A stretch of 64,000 nt of DNA. Source: Desulfuromusa sp. (GTDB taxonomy: Bacteria; Desulfobacterota; Desulfuromonadia; Desulfuromonadales; Geopsychrobacteraceae). Each line of letters starts with the position of its first letter. Position 1 is the first letter of the stretch. Position numbers and translations under genes: made by a program. The notes under the pieces were generated by a model that was given only the letters and a program-made list of their open reading frames with translations, had not been told where the DNA came from and did no database searches. Shown here piece after piece: positions 29,938-38,462 of the stretch. The stretch is taken from contig JADGEB010000014.1 in the NCBI GenBank assembly GCA_016744595.1, forward strand, positions 1 to 64,000, written 5' to 3'.

Positions 29938-29971
29938 ATAAGGGATGACCTCTAGTGAGATCATCCCTTAT
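29938..29971 (-). terminator. Hairpin next to the displaced ssrA end, probably the original ssrA terminator
   Basis: 15-bp arms with one mismatch around TAGT, directly after the duplicated CCA end of ssrA on the minus strand. A similar hairpin follows intact ssrA. The U-tract is short. Confidence 0.6.
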
Positions 29972-29972
29972 T

Positions 29973-29996
29973 TGGTGGAGGTGGCGGGCATCGAAC
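29973..29996. other. Attachment-site direct repeat (displaced 3' end of ssrA)
   Basis: 24 bases that match 38112-38135, the 3' CCA end and T-arm of tmRNA, at 23 of 24 positions and in the same orientation. After it the tmRNA similarity stops. This is the typical scar of an element integrated into the 3' end of ssrA. Confidence 0.85.
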
Positions 29997-30139: not shown

Positions 30140-30688
30140 TTATTTTTTTTTCACAACCATTTTCAGCATGCCCTTTATCTGATTAAATTTTTCCTGCATC
30201 CTCTCGTGTCGTGACCAACGGTCAACCTCTGCGAGATCGATCTTATTATCAGTGGCAACCAGAATAGCCTGTTCCAAGCACTGCTGGTCTTGCCAATGGT
30301 AATAGGCCGCAAGGCGATCTTTTATACAGTCCGTCGGGGATATAAGGCGCAACTTCCCTGTAGGAAAGTCTAATTCAACAATTTCCTTAACTGATTCACT
30401 TCCCACGGCCAATGGCCCGGTGGGAAATTCAACAAACCACTCAGATTCGGGATTGGTAAAATATTTGTTATTTTCGGAAAAACCAAGCTTCAAAAGAGCG
30501 GATTTGATGTTTTTGAGCTCTACTTCGTAGCCGCCAATAAAATCAAGATCAAAAAACTGATAACGATTGCTGCTATAGATCGTCACGCAACTACCACCAC
30601 TTAATACGACATCGATTCCTTGGTCTCTTAAATAGTTAGAAACAAAGGCACCAAATTCACCTATAGTCATTTCTTGAATCGGCTTCAT
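30140..30688 (-). CDS. Nucleotidyltransferase-fold protein (possible toxin-antitoxin component)
   Basis: 182 residues. The minimal nucleotidyltransferase motif is visible: L-S-G-G-S (about 32) followed 14 residues later by D-L-D-F (about 48). The rest is helical, with C-I-K-D-R-L-A-A-Y-Y-H-W-Q-D-Q-Q-C in the C-terminal half, typical of small DUF6036/AbiEii-like nucleotidyltransferases. Its ATG overlaps the stop of the upstream winged-helix gene (ATGA), so the two are coupled. This arrangement is common in type II/IV-like toxin-antitoxin or abortive-infection modules. The C-terminal third is duplicated at 37648-37863. Activity is not proven by sequence. Confidence 0.7.
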   Translation of the reverse strand: MKPIQEMTIGEFGAFVSNYLRDQGIDVVLSGGSCVTIYSSNRYQFFDLDFIGGYEVELKNIKSALLKLGFSENNKYFTNPESEWFVEFPTGPLAVGSESVKEIVELDFPTGKLRLISPTDCIKDRLAAYYHWQDQQCLEQAILVATDNKIDLAEVDRWSRHERMQEKFNQIKGMLKMVVKKK

Positions 30689-31014
30689 AGCGGTTTACCA
30701 GAACGTCTCGGTCGGCGTCTGTTCATAAGCAGTTGCTCTTTCATCTCTTCGGGATAAAAAACAAGAACCTTTTCTATAAGGGTTTTGAGTTCCTGGAGGA
30801 ATGGGTAACGAGGATCAAAAGCATAGACACGTGTGCGCCCTACCTGTTTGCAGTAAACAACACCACCGTTCTCAAGCTTTTCCAGTTGTTTTTGAATTGG
30901 ATCAAGTCCAACCTTGAAAAATCTTGCGATTTCTCTAGCATATCCATCATCGCGGGCAACAAGATAGATCATGACCCGTTCACGGTTGAGTGATCCCAAT
31001 ATTGACTCAAGCAT
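30685..31014 (-). CDS. Winged-helix DNA-binding protein, partner of the nucleotidyltransferase
   Basis: 109 residues from ATG 31014, chosen because GGAGG lies seven bases upstream; the frame extends further without a ribosome site. The fold is ArsR/MarR-like: R-E-I-A-R-F-F-K-V-G-L-D-P-I-Q-K-Q-L-E-K-L-E-N-G-G-V-V-Y-C-K-Q-V-G-R-T-R-V-Y is a recognition helix plus wing. A basic C-terminal tail (R-R-R-P-R-R-S-G-K) follows. A perfect palindrome GTCATGTGAC at 31033-31042 next to a TATTAT box may be its own operator. It probably represses the two-gene operon. Confidence 0.75.
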   Translation of the reverse strand: MLESILGSLNRERVMIYLVARDDGYAREIARFFKVGLDPIQKQLEKLENGGVVYCKQVGRTRVYAFDPRYPFLQELKTLIEKVLVFYPEEMKEQLLMNRRRPRRSGKPL

Positions 31015-31032
31015 TATCGACCTCCATAATAT

Positions 31033-31042
31033 GTCATGTGAC
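31033..31042. promoter_or_regulatory. Palindrome upstream of the wHTH/nucleotidyltransferase operon
   Basis: GTCATGTGAC, a perfect 10-bp inverted repeat, is 19 bases from the wHTH start codon and adjacent to a TATTAT -10-like box (31026-31031). It is a candidate autoregulatory operator. The remaining bases to 31474 hold no visible gene. Confidence 0.4.
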
Positions 31043-31474
31043 CTACAATAGATGTCAGTATGCTTCTTAGCAACAACCCTGGCAAGAAAAAAAGTAGCCC
31101 CGATACTCAGGATCTCAGACAATCTAATGCTCATCAAGCTGCCGTGCAATTAGCTGCAACACTCTAAAAATATAATTTGGTCCCCCTGGCAGCCATCCAA
31201 CTCAGTGAATAATAAACTTAAGCAGGAAAAACTACTTCCACGTTTTTTCTGTGATTACTATGGGGACTATTGTATATAGAATATTATCCTAATAAATTGC
31301 AACATGCGGTCTACCAAGTTCATCGTGCGGTACGAGGCAATTTCCTAAACAAAAGAAAAATTGATCAACAAAGATACTACTGCAAGGATGATTAAACAGG
31401 TAGTTAAGACTGAATTTCTGAATTAGTTCACTAACCGCAAATCATAATAGTGCACACACTCAAACGGAGGGGCC

Positions 31475-33589
31475 ATGAATATTAACCTAAGTGAAAAACC
31501 TGATAACTTCAACATTAGTATACAAGGCGGCATGCTGGAAGCTCTTGGCATCAACATGTATTCAACCTTAGGGAAATGCATTGTGGAATTTGTGGCTAAT
31601 TCTTACGATGCTGATGCGTGCCGTATAGATATTTCAATCCCCTTTGAAACAATAAATCAAGAGCGTCAAAAAGTTCGTGAAGCAGTAAAAAAAGAAGTTG
31701 AAATGGGCCTTAAAAAAACCTTTACCCTGCTAACATTGCCGCTCCCTGAAAACATTGAAGTTGTTCTAAGGGATGATGGTCACGGTATGGCTCCAGTCGA
31801 GATTGAAAAAAAGTTTCTCCCATTCAACAGAAATAGAAGACTCGACGAGACAACCCATGAAGAAACAAACACCACATCGGAAAGTAAAAAACGCAAGGTC
31901 ATGGGGCGTAAAGGGCTTGGAAAATTAGCAGGTTTCGGAGCCGCAGAGCTCGTTATAATACGAACAAAAAGGGAAAATGCAGATTTCTTCACTGAATTCA
32001 GGCTAGACTATGAAGATCTTAAGGCCAATGATAACATCTCCGAGGCGTCAATTATTCCTACCTACCACGCGGATCCAAATCTCAACACTCACTGGACAGA
32101 AATCACACTAGCAAAGTTAAAATGCGATGCAGTCAAGTATGGAGAGTCGTCATTTAAGACCACACTGCTATCTAATTTTTTTGGCGTACGTCCTGAAGAC
32201 TTTTCGATGTTTTTAAATGATGAACTCATCAGTGAAAAGCCTCCAGTCTACGAATATAACTACCCTGAAACGGCAGACCACAGTAACTTGGCTGAGCATT
32301 TAATAGCAATTGATGGCATCGGAAATATTCCCTTCAAATACCTCGTGCAGTTCAGGCAAAGAGGCGACCATCTGGCGGCAACAAAAAGAGGAGCACGCAT
32401 CTATTGTAATAACCGTTTAGCTGGCGGCCCGTCACTATTTAACATGCCCACCGGGATGCATGGCTTTCACAACCTCTCCTACATGGAGTGTATTGTACAA
32501 GCAGATGAATTTGACCGCATGGGCGTAGATCTTATTAATACAAACCGTACGCAGTTAAAAGAAGACAACGAGGCAGTGTCAATTTTTTTGGATGAAATTG
32601 GTGAGTTGATGAAAGCCGGAGTTGCAGGCTATTCGAAGTTTCGTGACAATATTGCCGAAGAAGAAATCAAACAATCACCGACGGGTGCCCCAATCTTCAA
32701 AATTCTTGACAATATGCCATCGAAAACAAGGACACCCGCTAAGTCCATCATTAAAAAGTTGGCAGCAGATCATGGAACAGAAAGCGACGCATTCCGTGAA
32801 ATAGCTCCGCTGGTTATTAATTCCATGAACTCTGGGGAAGTTCTGATTCGCCTTATAGAATTAGGCACTAATCCGGAGGATTTTAGTGAAATTGCTGATA
32901 CGTTAAAGGAACTTGCAGATATTGAAAAAAACGATGCGTTAAAACTATACCGAGGCAGAAAAAATGGAATCAAGGCACTCACAAACTTGAAAAATAAGGG
33001 TAAAGACCTCTGGAATAAGAAAGGAATTGAATCAGAGCTACAAGCTCTACTTAAGGATGCACCCTGGCTTATCAGACCGGAGTTTGGACAATACGCTTGC
33101 TCTGATGATGATCTCGAAAAGGTCTACTCTAGAATCGCCATTGATTTGAAAATTGATGAATACGCTAAAGACAAGAGTGAACAAAAAAAAGAAGAGCTCA
33201 GAAAACGACCTGACTTGGTTTTTGTTGCAGGCCCAGCTCACTCTGCGTTAGGAGGTGTAGTTGTTGTAGAATTGAAAAGTCCATCAATTCCACTAACAGA
33301 TGAACATCTACAACAGTTAGAGCATTATGTGAATCGCGTAGAAGATTGGCTAACCAATGAGCTTAAAGTTAAGGCCCCGCCAGTTAAGGGGTACTTGATC
33401 GGAAAACGGGGTGAAGCCAAGTCGCAAGCCACGGGAGTCTACAACTTAAGAAAGAGAGAAGAAAAAGCCGGACCTGAGACGATGTGGGTTGTCAAGGACA
33501 TGGAGCAGCTTCTTGACGAGGCGAAACAAATCCACCTAGAAGAAATCAAGGCACTTGAAAAATATCTTGAAGAAGAAGACGAAGCTTAA
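31475..33589 (+). CDS. GHKL (MORC/MutL-like) ATPase fused to a PD-(D/E)xK nuclease, predicted restriction enzyme
   Basis: 704 residues. The N-terminal GHKL ATPase shows the N box E-F-V-A-N-S-Y-D-A-D-A (about 44-54), D-D-G-H-G-M (about 97-102) and the lid G-R-K-G-L-G-K-L-A-G-F-G (about 145-156), then an S5-like transducer domain with T-K-R-G-A-R-I-Y. A charged helical linker (about 380-510) leads to E-S-E-L-Q-A-L-L-K-D-A-P-W-L, R-P-D-L-V-F-V and V-V-V-V-E-L-K-S-P. These give the Asp and Glu-x-Lys of a PD-(D/E)xK nuclease of the DUF4263 kind. GGAGGGG precedes the ATG. The gene is convergent with a C5-methyltransferase gene and their stop codons overlap in CTTAAG. Prokaryotic MORC/MutL-like ATPases beside cytosine methylases are known from comparative genomics as restriction components. 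Confidence 0.82.
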   Translation: MNINLSEKPDNFNISIQGGMLEALGINMYSTLGKCIVEFVANSYDADACRIDISIPFETINQERQKVREAVKKEVEMGLKKTFTLLTLPLPENIEVVLRDDGHGMAPVEIEKKFLPFNRNRRLDETTHEETNTTSESKKRKVMGRKGLGKLAGFGAAELVIIRTKRENADFFTEFRLDYEDLKANDNISEASIIPTYHADPNLNTHWTEITLAKLKCDAVKYGESSFKTTLLSNFFGVRPEDFSMFLNDELISEKPPVYEYNYPETADHSNLAEHLIAIDGIGNIPFKYLVQFRQRGDHLAATKRGARIYCNNRLAGGPSLFNMPTGMHGFHNLSYMECIVQADEFDRMGVDLINTNRTQLKEDNEAVSIFLDEIGELMKAGVAGYSKFRDNIAEEEIKQSPTGAPIFKILDNMPSKTRTPAKSIIKKLAADHGTESDAFREIAPLVINSMNSGEVLIRLIELGTNPEDFSEIADTLKELADIEKNDALKLYRGRKNGIKALTNLKNKGKDLWNKKGIESELQALLKDAPWLIRPEFGQYACSDDDLEKVYSRIAIDLKIDEYAKDKSEQKKEELRKRPDLVFVAGPAHSALGGVVVVELKSPSIPLTDEHLQQLEHYVNRVEDWLTNELKVKAPPVKGYLIGKRGEAKSQATGVYNLRKREEKAGPETMWVVKDMEQLLDEAKQIHLEEIKALEKYLEEEDEA

Positions 33590-34548
33590 GCAACACTTCG
33601 AAAATCAGCTTTAGCTACTGCATCGGCTATGACTTCTGCGAGAGGCACAGGAACACCATTTCCAATCTGCCTAGCGACTGAAGTTCTAGAGCCCTCAAAT
33701 TCCCACGAATCGGGGATACCTTGAATGCGTGCGCCTTCGCGCAAGGAGATCGCTCTATTTTTGCTGGGATGCAAATAACGCCCCTTTGACGGATTTTGGA
33801 AACAACATCGTAACGTGTTAGAGGGAACACTAGGATTCATACGCCCCCAAACGTCCGTAGCCTGCGTACCAAGCCTGAACCAAGACTCCGGACACAGCCC
33901 GGGATAACCAAGCATTAAATCCCTCTTGCCCCCGTTCGCAGGTATTCTTTTAATTCTCTTCTCCGCAATGCCTGTCGGTTCCGGCCATATATGCATGGAA
34001 TCGGAAACGGCAATAGGCGTGTCGAAAACAGAAGAAGCAGCCACTCGCGGTCGAGCCAATGGCTTAACCGGCATTTCCCCCTTAACTGCAATTGTAAATG
34101 CACGTAACCGCTTCTGCGGGACACCGTAATCAGCCGAATTCAAAACCCAAGTATCGATTACAAACCCATCTTTTTTCAACCGGCCGGTCATCTCTTTCCA
34201 GTAGGGACTCTTAAGGAACTGCGGAACGTTTTCCACAATAACAGTTGATACTCCCAGAGAACTGGCCCAATCCGGGATAAGCAAAGAAAGCTCGTTTCTT
34301 TTATCGCGAGGATCACGACGGCCCAATGTACTGAACCCCTGGCAAGGGGGTCCTGCAAGCAAAACATCGGCCGATATTCCCTTCTTTATTTTTGCAACAT
34401 CAGCAACTTCAGCAACTTCAGCAATATTACGTCGATAACTCTTAATGGCATCCGCATCCATATCCAAGGCCAAAACAGGCTCAAAACCAGCACGAAGAAA
34501 GCCCTCACTCAACAATCCAGCTCCGCAAAAGATGTCAGCAACACGCAT
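33586..34548 (-). CDS. DNA (cytosine-5-)-methyltransferase
   Basis: 320 residues from ATG 34548 (AGGGAG upstream); the frame is open to 34602 without a ribosome site. Conserved m5C motifs in order: I A-D-I-F-C-G-A-G-L-L-S-E-G-F; IV G-P-P-C-Q-G-F-S with the catalytic Cys; VI V-E-N-V-P; VIII Y-G-V-P-Q-K-R-L-R; X R-Q-I-G-N-G-V-P. The target-recognition region (about 170-260) is short. It is convergent with the GHKL-nuclease and divergent from the HTH gene by 48 bases, so the three form a self-contained restriction-modification unit. Its recognition site is unknown. Confidence 0.93.
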   Translation of the reverse strand: MRVADIFCGAGLLSEGFLRAGFEPVLALDMDADAIKSYRRNIAEVAEVADVAKIKKGISADVLLAGPPCQGFSTLGRRDPRDKRNELSLLIPDWASSLGVSTVIVENVPQFLKSPYWKEMTGRLKKDGFVIDTWVLNSADYGVPQKRLRAFTIAVKGEMPVKPLARPRVAASSVFDTPIAVSDSMHIWPEPTGIAEKRIKRIPANGGKRDLMLGYPGLCPESWFRLGTQATDVWGRMNPSVPSNTLRCCFQNPSKGRYLHPSKNRAISLREGARIQGIPDSWEFEGSRTSVARQIGNGVPVPLAEVIADAVAKADFRSVA

Positions 34549-34580
34549 AATAATCTCCCTCTTGTTAAACAAAAGAATAT

Positions 34581-34604
34581 ATGCAATTATGCAACTATGC
34601 AAGC
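34581..34604. repeat. Three tandem 8-bp ATGCAANN repeats at the HTH gene start
   Basis: ATGCAATT, ATGCAACT and ATGCAAGC in direct succession. The third contains the start codon of the HTH gene. They lie between the divergent methyltransferase and HTH genes and could be an operator of the controller protein. Confidence 0.6.
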
Positions 34605-34953
34605 ATTAAAAGACGACGAAATAAAAAAGATCTCGGCTCGTACTCGCCATTTTCTAAAAAGTTCAAATATGAGTCAAAACGCTCTATCTGGCGCCATAGG
34701 AGTCGATCAGCCTTTTGTATCCAGAGTATTAAATATGAATTTCAAAAGGCAAAGTCCTAAATTACTTCTCCTCATCAAATACATAAATATGCATTTAAAA
34801 ATTGTAAAAATCCCGGACGAACTAAACTCATCGATTTCCAACTATTTGGCCATAGGAGGGGATTCTTCGGTTATTACCGTTTTCGTAGAAACGCTGATCA
34901 AATCAAACATTTATGGAGGTGAGATAGAACAATCCAGCCACGACCAAACCTAA
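34597..34953 (+). CDS. HTH (XRE-like) regulator of the restriction-modification unit
   Basis: 118 residues. The N-terminal helix-turn-helix has M-S-Q-N-A-L-S-G-A-I-G-V-D-Q-P-F-V-S-R-V-L-N, typical of Cro/C1-type DNA binding. The C-terminal part (about 65-110) is not recognised. No Shine-Dalgarno sequence is visible and the ATG lies in the third ATGCAANN repeat, so the transcript may be leaderless or the start may differ. Position between a divergent methyltransferase and the rest of the island suggests a controller (C) protein, though it is longer than classical C proteins (about 80 aa). Confidence 0.75.
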   Translation: MQALKDDEIKKISARTRHFLKSSNMSQNALSGAIGVDQPFVSRVLNMNFKRQSPKLLLLIKYINMHLKIVKIPDELNSSISNYLAIGGDSSVITVFVETLIKSNIYGGEIEQSSHDQT

Positions 34954-35399: not shown

Positions 35400-36893
35400 A
35401 TGAAATCTTCGAAAAGAAAAAAAAGAGAAAACAAATTAAAAGAAAAGAAGAAAAAGATCCTCACTAGGCAGCAACAGAAAAATTATTTACTTAACAAGGG
35501 TATTCTTCCAGGGGGATGGATTAAAGGCATAACAAAAAGGCAATTTGATGCTTTCTGCTATTCAAGGCTCCCATATGCACGGTTTATGACAACTGAAATT
35601 GAATGGTTTGAAATTTGCAATATTAAGTTGATTGCAGTGATCCTTCTAGATCATACCGATATGGATTATGGCTACATTCTCCTCGGAAGAGACACTAGAA
35701 ATGTTTTTAGGTGTATTTCCGTCTGTAAGGAATTTTATTCTTCTATTGAAGTGGCTAGAAAAAATTTAATACTTCATGCTCAAAAATATTCAAATGATGG
35801 TTGTGATAACTATCCTCAACTAGATGAAAAGCTGATCACAAATGAATTATTTGAAGTTGTCGTTGAAAAAAATAAAATTCATCAGCACTTCGATGTACTT
35901 TCAAACGAATCACGGTATGAACCAGCAAGAAACCTTATAAAGGAAATTGTTTATAGTTTTGAGGATCCAGATGGTAATTACATTAAGGATTTTCAGTCTA
36001 CCGGTTTTGATGGGCGATTATGGGAATTGTATCTTCATGTTTATCTCCACACTGCCGGATTTACACTTAAGAGAGATAAGCCTGCACCAGATTTCCATGC
36101 CGATTTTTTGGGAGATGAGGTCTTCATTGAAGCAGTAACCGTAAATCCAAGTCAGGACAAAGCTAGGCCAGATGAGCCCTCAAATCCAACACCTGAGCGA
36201 GCAATAGAACTAACAAAGGATTATATGCCAATCAAGTTTGGGAGTCCTTTATTTTCTAAGTTAAATAGGGAAAAAAAATATTGGGAGATGTCACATGTTA
36301 AGGGAAAGCCATTTGTGCTGGCAATCCATGATTTTCACTCCGCAGGATCGATGACTTGGTCGAGAATAGCACTATCCGACTATCTATATGGCAAAAGAGT
36401 ACAGCTCAACAAAGATGAAGCTGGAAATCTATCTCCTTCAATTGAACACATTGAAGAGCACAAGTGGAATGGAAAAACAATACCATCTGGATTTTTCAAT
36501 CTCCCGGATGCTGAAAACATCAGTGGCGTGCTCTTCAGTAACGCTGCAACTATTACTAAATTCAATCGAATGGGAAGAATTGCCGGCCTTGGAGGTGACG
36601 ATGTTAAAATGATTCGTCGCGGTTCTTTATATAACCCAGATCCTGAGGCGATGGAGCCTATTCCATTCGTGGTAGATCTGGACGATCCGAACTATGAAGA
36701 ATCATGGTCTGATAGCTTGGCAATGTTTCATAACCCTAACGCTAAACACCCTATTCCTGAACAGTTATTTAGTGATATATCCAATATTCATTATAGTGAA
36801 GAGGAAGGTTTTTTTGGCTACCATCAGCCGTATGACGTACTTGAGTCTATTACGTTAATATTCTCCACAGATAAGCAGAAATATCATGACTAA
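35400..36893 (+). CDS. Hypothetical protein, possible PD-(D/E)xK-like nuclease
   Basis: 497 residues, no family recognised. It starts with a strongly basic segment (about residues 3-25) without hydrophobic runs. A nuclease-like patch is visible at about 205-250: G-R-L-W-E-L-Y-L-H-V-Y-L, then A-P-D-F-H-A-D-F and E-V-F-I-E-A-V-T-V. This gives the E...PD...E-x-V pattern seen in some divergent PD-(D/E)xK enzymes, with the usual Lys replaced. The remaining 250 residues are acidic and unassigned. AT-rich composition and location in the island suggest recent acquisition and a defence role. It stands alone on the plus strand, and the 204 bases after it hold no gene. Confidence 0.55.
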   Translation: MKSSKRKKRENKLKEKKKKILTRQQQKNYLLNKGILPGGWIKGITKRQFDAFCYSRLPYARFMTTEIEWFEICNIKLIAVILLDHTDMDYGYILLGRDTRNVFRCISVCKEFYSSIEVARKNLILHAQKYSNDGCDNYPQLDEKLITNELFEVVVEKNKIHQHFDVLSNESRYEPARNLIKEIVYSFEDPDGNYIKDFQSTGFDGRLWELYLHVYLHTAGFTLKRDKPAPDFHADFLGDEVFIEAVTVNPSQDKARPDEPSNPTPERAIELTKDYMPIKFGSPLFSKLNREKKYWEMSHVKGKPFVLAIHDFHSAGSMTWSRIALSDYLYGKRVQLNKDEAGNLSPSIEHIEEHKWNGKTIPSGFFNLPDAENISGVLFSNAATITKFNRMGRIAGLGGDDVKMIRRGSLYNPDPEAMEPIPFVVDLDDPNYEESWSDSLAMFHNPNAKHPIPEQLFSDISNIHYSEEEGFFGYHQPYDVLESITLIFSTDKQKYHD

Positions 36894-37647: not shown

Positions 37648-37863
37648 TCAAACAATATTGTCTCCATTTTTCAGCTGACTCTCAATCTGTCTAAATTCTT
37701 CCAACATGCCCTCATGCTCTGACCAACTTTCAACCTCAGCAAGATCAACCTGATTATCGGTAGCAACTAAAATTGCCTGCACCAAACACTGCTGATCTTG
37801 CCAATGGTAATAGGCAGCAAGGTGATCTTTTATGCAGTCTGTCGGCAATATAAGGTGCAACTT
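37648..37863 (-). pseudogene. Truncated second copy of the island nucleotidyltransferase gene
   Basis: About 70 codons corresponding to the C-terminal part of the gene at 30140-30688. Shared runs include P-T-D-C-I-K-D, L-A-A-Y-Y-H-W-Q-D-Q-Q-C-L and Q-A-I-L-V-A-T-D-N; about three quarters of residues are identical by eye. Similarity stops abruptly at 37863 (after K-L-H-L), so the nucleotidyltransferase motif and N-terminus are missing and no wHTH partner is present. Both copies have the same orientation, so they form a direct repeat near the two ends of the island. Confidence 0.82.
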
Positions 37864-38070: not shown

Positions 38071-38111
38071 ATTAAAAAGGGTCACCCCGATATGGGATGA
38101 CCCTTTTTAAT
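38071..38111 (-). terminator. Terminator of ssrA
   Basis: Long inverted repeat of ATTAAAAAGGGTCA type around a CCCCGATATGGGA top. Flanking A and T runs make it usable in both directions. It starts one base after the tmRNA CCA end. Confidence 0.88.
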
Positions 38112-38462
38112 TGGTGGAGGTGGCGGGAATCGAACCCGCGTCCGAAAGCTTTCCACGTAAGGCTTCTACATGCGTAGTCTGTGTTTTAAATTAACCGGAT
38201 GAGGCTCCCACAGACAGGATATCCACCAGGCGAGTCTGCTTTAATTTCGCTTCGGCGCCACAGACACTCGCTGAAACTAGCCTGCTAAATTAACGTCTCA
38301 CCACCCACACAGGCAATAAATGAAAAGACGTAACAGCCTTAGGCTGCTAGTGCGTAACTAACGTCAGTATCTGCGTTTAGTTAAGTTGGGCTTGTTACGG
38401 AGCCAGCCCACTCCGGCATGCGACACTTCGCTTCTGTCCCCCGTCGAAACCTTGACACCCCC
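38112..38462 (-). ncRNA. ssrA: tmRNA (trans-translation RNA)
   Basis: The 5' end GGGGGTGTC pairs with the 3' CACCTCC as acceptor stem, and the RNA ends in encoded CCA (38112-38114). The T-arm GGTTCGATTCC is intact. The tag reading frame translates to A-D-T-D-V-S-Y-A-L-A-A followed by TAA, giving the typical Y-A-L-A-A degradation signal. With SmpB, encoded 74 bases upstream, it rescues stalled ribosomes. The 3' end is the integration site of the adjacent island and is duplicated at 29973-29996. Confidence 0.96.

What the first reader, a model, noticed from the sequence alone, without database searches (positions are those of the whole stretch)
31475..34953. Three-gene restriction system built on a MORC/MutL-like ATPase-nuclease
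A 704-residue GHKL ATPase with an S5-like domain and a C-terminal PD-(D/E)xK nuclease is convergent with a C5 cytosine methyltransferase, and an HTH gene is divergent from the methyltransferase. The set is self-contained and lies in a mobile island. MORC-like ATPases in restriction loci have been described by comparative genomics, but the use of ATP-driven clamping with a DUF4263-like nuclease and a single m5C methylase is poorly characterised experimentally. Mechanistically it could be a clamp that loads on unmethylated DNA.
Basis: partly seen in the sequence, partly recalled or inferred. Interest (0 to 1): 0.78.

Follow-up and report, generated by a model that had tools for sequence, protein, structure and literature searches.

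The report
ATPase-nuclease restriction-modification system with regulator
A mobile bacterial DNA island carries a three-gene restriction-modification system: a cytosine methylase that marks the cell's own DNA, a gyrase/MutL-like ATPase fused to a Shedu-type nuclease that probably cuts unmarked DNA, and a small repressor-like protein with its own conserved DNA-repeat operator; the general kind is known, but this branch, its target sequence and its regulator are not described.

Summary
At 31475-33589 there is a 704-aa GHKL-S5 ATPase with a C-terminal PD-(D/E)xK nuclease (E519-D580-E599xK601). It is convergent with a complete C5 cytosine methyltransferase, which is divergent from a small HTH gene; all three lie in an 8.2-kb island at the ssrA 3' end.

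Homologue surveys support a restriction-modification (RM) system: 30 of 31 close homologues have a C5 methyltransferase next door (the exception is cut by its contig end), and the two proteins co-vary (r=0.62, p=0.0002). The predicted nuclease fold matches solved Shedu nucleases best. The kind is known: all homologues hit the BbrUII/HgiDII restriction-enzyme model, and the architecture is paraMORC3/Shedu I-D. However, this protein belongs to a separate, well-supported sister clade with its own conserved methyltransferase recognition region (target unknown).

New here: the HTH is dedicated to RM loci and, in this clade, always divergent from the methyltransferase. It co-occurs with a tandem ATGCR operator in their shared promoter (7 of 9 loci with the HTH, 0 of 18 without; Fisher 4e-5), and it turns up at other RM loci with N4- or N6-type methyltransferases.

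ATP-driven clamping is plausible but unproven.

The parts
31475..33589 (+). Restriction subunit: GHKL ATPase + S5-like domain + C-terminal Shedu-like PD-(D/E)xK nuclease, 704 aa
   Evidence: ORF; HATPase_c_3 2e-15; NF050001 BbrUII/HgiDII E=3.8e-46 (158 bits, cut-off 550); fold; tree
31571..32038 (+). GHKL ATP-binding domain (residues 33-188): N-box E38/N42/D45, D100-G-x-GM105, G144RKGxGK150
   Evidence: boundaries; column counts in 46 homologues (E38 45/46, D45, D100, G147 and K150 46/46)
32963..33586 (+). C-terminal PD-(D/E)xK nuclease region (residues 497-704), E519 - D580 - E599xK601
   Evidence: columns; SduA_C in 23/34 homologous C-termini (best 1e-5; window itself 0.017, below cut-off); top 8 PDB fold matches are Shedu
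33586..34548 (-). C5 cytosine DNA methyltransferase, 320 aa from ATG 34548
   Evidence: DNA_methylase 4e-50; translation; M.HhaI, M.HaeIII and DNMT1 in the PDB; Shine-Dalgarno-like stretch
34549..34604 (.). Divergent promoter/operator region: three direct ATGCAANN repeats at 34581-34604, shared by methyltransferase and HTH gene
   Evidence: conserved as tandem ATGCR repeats in homologous loci
34597..34953 (+). Small HTH protein, probable repressor of the methyltransferase and of itself
   Evidence: weak HTH_3; conserved in 9 of 31 close loci, always divergent from the methyltransferase; one copy per genome
29968..29996 (.). Distal att-like copy of the ssrA 3' end (island boundary)
   Evidence: repeat D2, 93% identity to 38107-38135
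38107..38135 (.). ssrA (tmRNA) 3' end, proximal att-like copy (island boundary)
35400..36893 (+). Neighbouring defence gene of the PD-T7-1 type, same island (not part of the RM system)
   Evidence: PADLOC PD-T7-1 E=8.6e-168

Best explanation
This is a type II-like restriction-modification system. The C5 methyltransferase marks one short DNA sequence on the host genome. The 704-aa protein is the cognate restriction enzyme: its GHKL-S5 part most likely dimerises and closes on ATP, as in other GHKL enzymes, and gates a Shedu-type PD-(D/E)xK nuclease that cuts DNA in which that sequence is unmethylated. The HTH protein most likely binds tandem ATGCR repeats in the shared divergent promoter and represses the methyltransferase gene and its own gene, setting methylase dosage after the island enters a new host. 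Shown here: domain content, intact catalytic motifs, conserved linkage and co-variation of ATPase and methyltransferase, and co-occurrence of HTH and operator repeats. Inferred: cutting, target identity, ATP gating, and the direction of regulation. Confidence given is for the restriction-modification reading; I put the ATP-gated clamp step at about 0.45.
For: C5 methyltransferase adjacent in 30/31 close and 72/85 distant homologues found by ATPase sequence alone; the one close exception ends at its contig edge. ATPase and methyltransferase distances correlate, r=0.62, 1/5001 permutations. All 46 homologues match the BbrUII/HgiDII restriction-enzyme model, and L113 is a true member at 728 bits. 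Catalytic motifs of both ATPase and nuclease are conserved. Hsp90 and MORC folds for the N-terminus, Shedu nucleases for the C-terminus. Vsr genes in 11/31 close loci fit in-vivo 5mC. HTH always divergent from the methyltransferase whichever way the ATPase lies; repeats in 7/9 loci with the HTH, 0/18 without it, 0/21 ATPase upstream regions. Precedent: VcSduA ATPase (E27A) and nuclease (K557A) mutants both lose phage protection (PMC12137116).
Against: The 158-bit score is far below the BbrUII/HgiDII equivalog cut-off (550). The Shedu fold match is modest (E 1.8e-3, TM about 0.45-0.5), and the window's own SduA_C Pfam hit is sub-threshold. The HTH is found in only 9 of 31 close loci, so it is not essential to the system. 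No cleavage, methylation or phage data exist for this clade. The operator pattern was defined after looking at some of the loci.
Confidence: 0.8

Rival explanations
1. A Shedu-like, methylation-independent phage nuclease (type I-D, as VcSduA) that senses DNA ends or another phage signal; the methyltransferase is a protective or regulatory passenger rather than a site-matched partner.
For: GHKL + SduA_C-like architecture and fold; VcSduA works as a single gene; Shedu nucleases sense DNA ends (PMC12904381).
Against: Near-universal C5 methyltransferase linkage and co-variation; a recognition region conserved within the clade; related enzymes HgiDII/BbrUII are restriction enzymes.
Confidence: 0.12
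2. A decayed or silent system on a degenerate island: genes intact by sequence but no longer expressed or active.
For: No integrase in the island; a truncated second copy of a nucleotidyltransferase gene beside ssrA shows rearrangement.
Against: All three ORFs are full length with intact catalytic motifs, a good ribosome-binding site before the ATPase and an SD-like stretch before the methyltransferase.
Confidence: 0.06
3. The HTH is a classical RM controller (C protein) that activates the restriction gene to delay its expression.
For: Small HTH proteins in RM loci are often C proteins (general knowledge).
Against: The HTH tracks the methyltransferase, not the ATPase; the ATPase upstream region has no repeats in any of 21 loci. 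Only where methyltransferase and ATPase are in tandem could one operator control both (e.g. L011, L012, L026).
Confidence: 0.15

Closest known systems
BbrUII/HgiDII family type II restriction enzymes (NCBIfam NF050001) with M.HgiDII (GTCGAC)
   Same: GHKL ATPase fused to a C-terminal E-D-ExK nuclease, C5 methyltransferase next door; all 46 homologues match the model.
   Different: Scores 158 versus cut-off 550; separate 27-member clade, 100/99 support; methyltransferase recognition region only 28-30% identical to the HgiDII-type loci versus 53-63% to the proteobacterial clade members compared, so probably another target.
paraMORC3 GHKL proteins (Iyer, Abhiman and Aravind 2008, PMC2292703)
   Same: GHKL + S5 + C-terminal RE-fold domain with E-D-ExK, in RM neighbourhoods, with Vsr.
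   Different: No SFII helicase was found among the window's neighbouring genes; residues 306-316 (GARIYCNNRLA) fit the MORC signature GhXhhpXXRhl at 10 of 11 positions, which paraMORCs are said to lack.
Shedu type I-D, VcSduA (PMC12137116)
   Same: N-terminal GHKL ATPase and C-terminal Shedu-type PD-(D/E)xK nuclease; predicted nuclease fold matches Shedu structures best.
   Different: VcSduA is described as acting alone; this clade comes with a C5 methyltransferase. The window's own SduA_C Pfam score is below the cut-off.
Controller (C) proteins of type II RM systems
   Same: Small HTH protein encoded in the RM locus with operator repeats close by.
   Different: Divergent from the methyltransferase; direct ATGCR repeats lie in the methyltransferase/HTH promoter and not before the restriction gene.

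Membership tests
Type II restriction-modification system | DNA methyltransferase with complete catalytic motifs | tested here: met
Type II restriction-modification system | Linked nuclease with intact active-site motif | tested here: met
   E519-D580-E599xK601; fold
Type II restriction-modification system | Nuclease and methyltransferase act on the same DNA sequence; methylation blocks cutting | not testable with these tools
   Only indirect: linkage and co-variation
BbrUII/HgiDII restriction enzyme (NF050001) | Score above the curated equivalog cut-off | tested here: not met
   158 vs 550 bits; sister clade in the tree
BbrUII/HgiDII restriction enzyme (NF050001) | Target GTCGAC | tested here: inconclusive
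   Recognition regions differ strongly; no motif avoidance specific to these loci
paraMORC3 | GHKL + S5 + C-terminal RE-fold domain with E-D-ExK | tested here: met
   definition from PMC2292703
paraMORC3 | Lacks the MORC-specific S5 motif GhXhhpXXRhl | tested here: inconclusive
   Residues 306-316 GARIYCNNRLA fit 10 of 11 positions (alignment)
Shedu type I-D | SduA_C (DUF4263) nuclease domain | tested here: inconclusive
   23 of 34 homologous C-termini match (best 1e-5), window 0.017 below cut-off; top fold matches are Shedu
Shedu type I-D | Acts as a single-gene system | not testable with these tools
   C5 methyltransferase adjacent in 30/31 close homologues argues against
RM controller (C) protein | Operator lies before the restriction gene (or its operon) that the protein activates or times | tested here: not met
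   Repeats at methyltransferase/HTH promoter only, 0/21 ATPase upstream regions; binding itself not tested

The most novel reading that the evidence does not exclude
This clade is a sequence-specific, ATP-gated Shedu-type nuclease in which methylation licensing replaces DNA-end sensing: the GHKL dimer closes around DNA at an unmethylated site and switches on the nuclease. It is controlled by a previously undescribed HTH regulator with ATGCR operators that moves between RM systems with C5, N4- and N6-type methyltransferases.
Probability: 0.3. Interest if true: 0.65.

Novelty: new variant of a known kind. Interest (0 to 1): 0.45.

Why it matters
It links three things usually treated apart: type II restriction enzymes (HgiDII/BbrUII), Shedu phage nucleases, and MORC/MutL-type ATPases. 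With a methyltransferase that names its own target, the system would let the role of the GHKL ATPase in nuclease gating be tested on defined DNA substrates, which stand-alone VcSduA does not offer. The HTH-operator module is a concrete, easily tested proposal for how such an RM system controls its methylase.

Tried and rejected
Single-sequence search of GTDB contigs found nothing; the three-sequence alignment did. Single-sequence PDB search of the ATPase gave no hit. Palindrome avoidance in about 358 kb of clade loci versus controls gave no clade-specific motif, so the target could not be predicted. No phage record matched the ATPase by tblastn, although IMG/VR contigs do carry homologues. HTH searches of plasmids gave nothing, and an HTH search of 385 genomes drawn from the wider class found no new locus. 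Promoter and terminator scans were at chance level. Searches for an ATP-dependence study of HgiDII/BbrUII found none in the held library; the BbrUII paper is not held.

Full report
Observation. The three ORFs exist at the stated coordinates. The ATPase has a GHKL domain (HATPase_c_3, 2e-15). The methyltransferase is a complete C5 enzyme with motif C in GPPCQG, and it matches M.HhaI, M.HaeIII and DNMT1 in the PDB. Its better start is ATG 34548, because the minus strand carries AGAGGGAGA just upstream. The HTH gene is weak by Pfam (0.0065) but conserved. ATPase and methyltransferase stop codons overlap by 4 bp.

Anatomy of the ATPase-nuclease. In 46 homologues (A3) the GHKL residues are almost invariant (E38 45/46; D45, D100, G102, G104, M105, G147, G149 and K150 46/46). 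R314 in the S5 region is always basic (R 34, K 12), a candidate for the catalytic basic residue (inference). The nuclease motif E519-D580-E599xK601 is intact here; K601 is replaced by M in 10 of 46, all outside the close clade. The full-length model (mean pLDDT 82) matches Hsp90/TRAP1 and MORC2/MORC3 ATPases. A separate model of residues 497-704 (pLDDT 81.5) gives eight Shedu chains as its first eight PDB matches, best E 1.8e-3, TM about 0.45-0.5. SduA_C matches 23 of 34 homologous C-termini, best 1e-5. The C-terminal nuclease fold is therefore supported, at moderate strength.

Partnership. The ATPase alignment, which knows nothing of the methyltransferase, gathered 80 genome loci and 33 viral contigs. 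Among 31 close homologues, 30 have a C5 methyltransferase within 1.5 kb (23 convergent, 6 methyltransferase-first tandem, 1 ATPase-first tandem); the exception, L035, ends at its contig edge. Among 85 distant homologues, 72 do; of the 13 that do not, several lie near contig ends or have one about 2 kb away, and seven have enough flank and none. Pairwise distances of the two proteins correlate (r=0.62; no permutation of 5000 as high). Vsr genes, expected where 5mC deaminates, occur in 11 of 31 close loci.

Kinship. All 46 proteins match NF050001, the BbrUII/HgiDII restriction-enzyme family. L113 is a full member (728 bits); the window protein is not (158 bits, cut-off 550). A maximum-likelihood tree puts the window in a 27-member clade (100/99) separate from L113/L109/L104 (100/100), with a viral contig, L090 (58% identity), as nearest relative. 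In the clade the region between methyltransferase motifs VIII and IX, where the target-recognition domain lies, is as conserved as or more conserved than the whole enzyme (53-63% versus 46-54% in the proteobacterial members compared), and only 28-30% identical to HgiDII-type loci. The simplest reading is one shared, still unknown target for the clade. M.HgiDII methylates GTCGAC (PMC5867850). Motif avoidance gave no answer.

The HTH and its operator. HTH homologues occur in 9 of 31 close loci and are divergent from the methyltransferase in all nine, whether the ATPase is convergent with or downstream of it. Reading the shared promoter regions showed tandem repeats of the form AATGCGAATATGCGATATATGCAAGC; the window has ATGCAATT-ATGCAACT-ATGCAAGC at 34581-34604. 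The pattern ATGCR-N2-4-ATGCR occurs upstream of the methyltransferase in 7 of 9 loci with the HTH and 0 of 18 without it (Fisher 4e-5; 1.2e-4 without a near-duplicate), against 0.27 expected by shuffling, and in 0 of 21 ATPase upstream regions. The pattern was chosen after seeing those loci, so loci found later matter more. An HTH search of 399 genomes gave four further loci, and all four have the pattern: L168 and L169 are the same trio; L170 has an N4/N6-type methyltransferase divergent from the HTH, followed by another GHKL ATPase; L171 has D12-class N6 methyltransferase genes on the same strand as the HTH. L169 is related to L011/L012, so it is not fully independent. Four RM-bearing genomes examined have one copy of the HTH each. 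A 24-bp form of the operator, written after the HTH loci of L019 and L168 had been seen, is found with up to two mismatches in 2 of 399 genomes, only at those HTH loci, with no reversed-control match. This points to an RM-dedicated regulator without a wider regulon.

Island. The ssrA 3' end (38107-38135) is repeated at 29968-29996 with 27 of 29 bases identical, enclosing the RM genes, a PD-T7-1 defence gene, a winged-helix/nucleotidyltransferase pair and a truncated second copy of the latter. Congeners carry other cargo at the same spot: integrases at L150 and L152, transporter genes at L148. It is an ssrA integration hotspot; this copy has no integrase.

Mechanism and literature. Iyer et al. 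2008 (PMC2292703) described GHKL proteins of RM loci and paraMORC3 with an E-D-ExK C-terminal domain. In 2025 VcSduA, a GHKL-Shedu protein, was shown to need both its ATPase (E27A) and its nuclease (K557A) for phage protection without loss of host viability (PMC12137116). EcSduA, with a different N-terminus, binds DNA ends (PMC12904381). The best reading here is an RM system in which ATP-driven closure gates a Shedu-type nuclease, and methylation of the target prevents activation or cutting. Only the parts list, conservation and linkage are shown; cutting, ATP need, target and direction of regulation are inferred.

Verdict. The finding is real and mostly well read. It is a new branch of a known kind rather than a new mechanism; the regulator-operator module is the freshest element.

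Noticed in passing
35400-36893 (+): Full-length PD-T7-1 anti-phage defence gene (PADLOC 8.6e-168) beside the RM system; no Pfam or NCBIfam match.
   Followed up: partly
29968-29996 and 38107-38135: att-like duplication of the ssrA 3' end bounding an 8.2-kb island; the same site holds integrases or other cargo in congeners.
   Followed up: yes
30140-31149 (-) and 37668-37863: Winged-helix + nucleotidyltransferase-like pair (PADLOC PDC-M05A 5e-11 for the winged-helix gene) with a 196-nt, 80% identical second copy of the nucleotidyltransferase 3' part beside ssrA; in congener L155 a piece of the same module's upstream region lies next to ssrA.
   Followed up: partly
L170:6848-11343: The same HTH family and operator, divergent from an N4/N6-type methyltransferase followed by an 880-aa GHKL ATPase: a different GHKL-RM system under the same regulator.
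   Followed up: partly
L171:3303-7280: HTH of the same family on the same strand as D12-class N6 methyltransferase and N6_Mtase-like genes, with an IS1595-like transposase gene (judged by eye) upstream.
   Followed up: partly
L090 (IMG/VR 3300031673_016569): Nearest relative of the ATPase (58%) lies on a 67-kb predicted viral contig, convergent with a C5 methyltransferase and preceded by a Vsr gene.
   Followed up: no
window residues 306-316 of the ATPase (nt 32390-32422): GARIYCNNRLA fits the MORC signature GhXhhpXXRhl at 10 of 11 positions although the architecture is paraMORC3 (motif from PMC2292703).
   Followed up: no
L034:5968-8001: A Bacteroidota homologue with the ATPase and methyltransferase reading frames broken into several pieces: probable pseudogenes.
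   Followed up: no
L037, L038, L041, L043, L044, L046, L047, L055, L075, L079: Distant homologues have ExM in place of ExK in the nuclease motif, so the catalytic lysine may have moved or been lost there.
   Followed up: no
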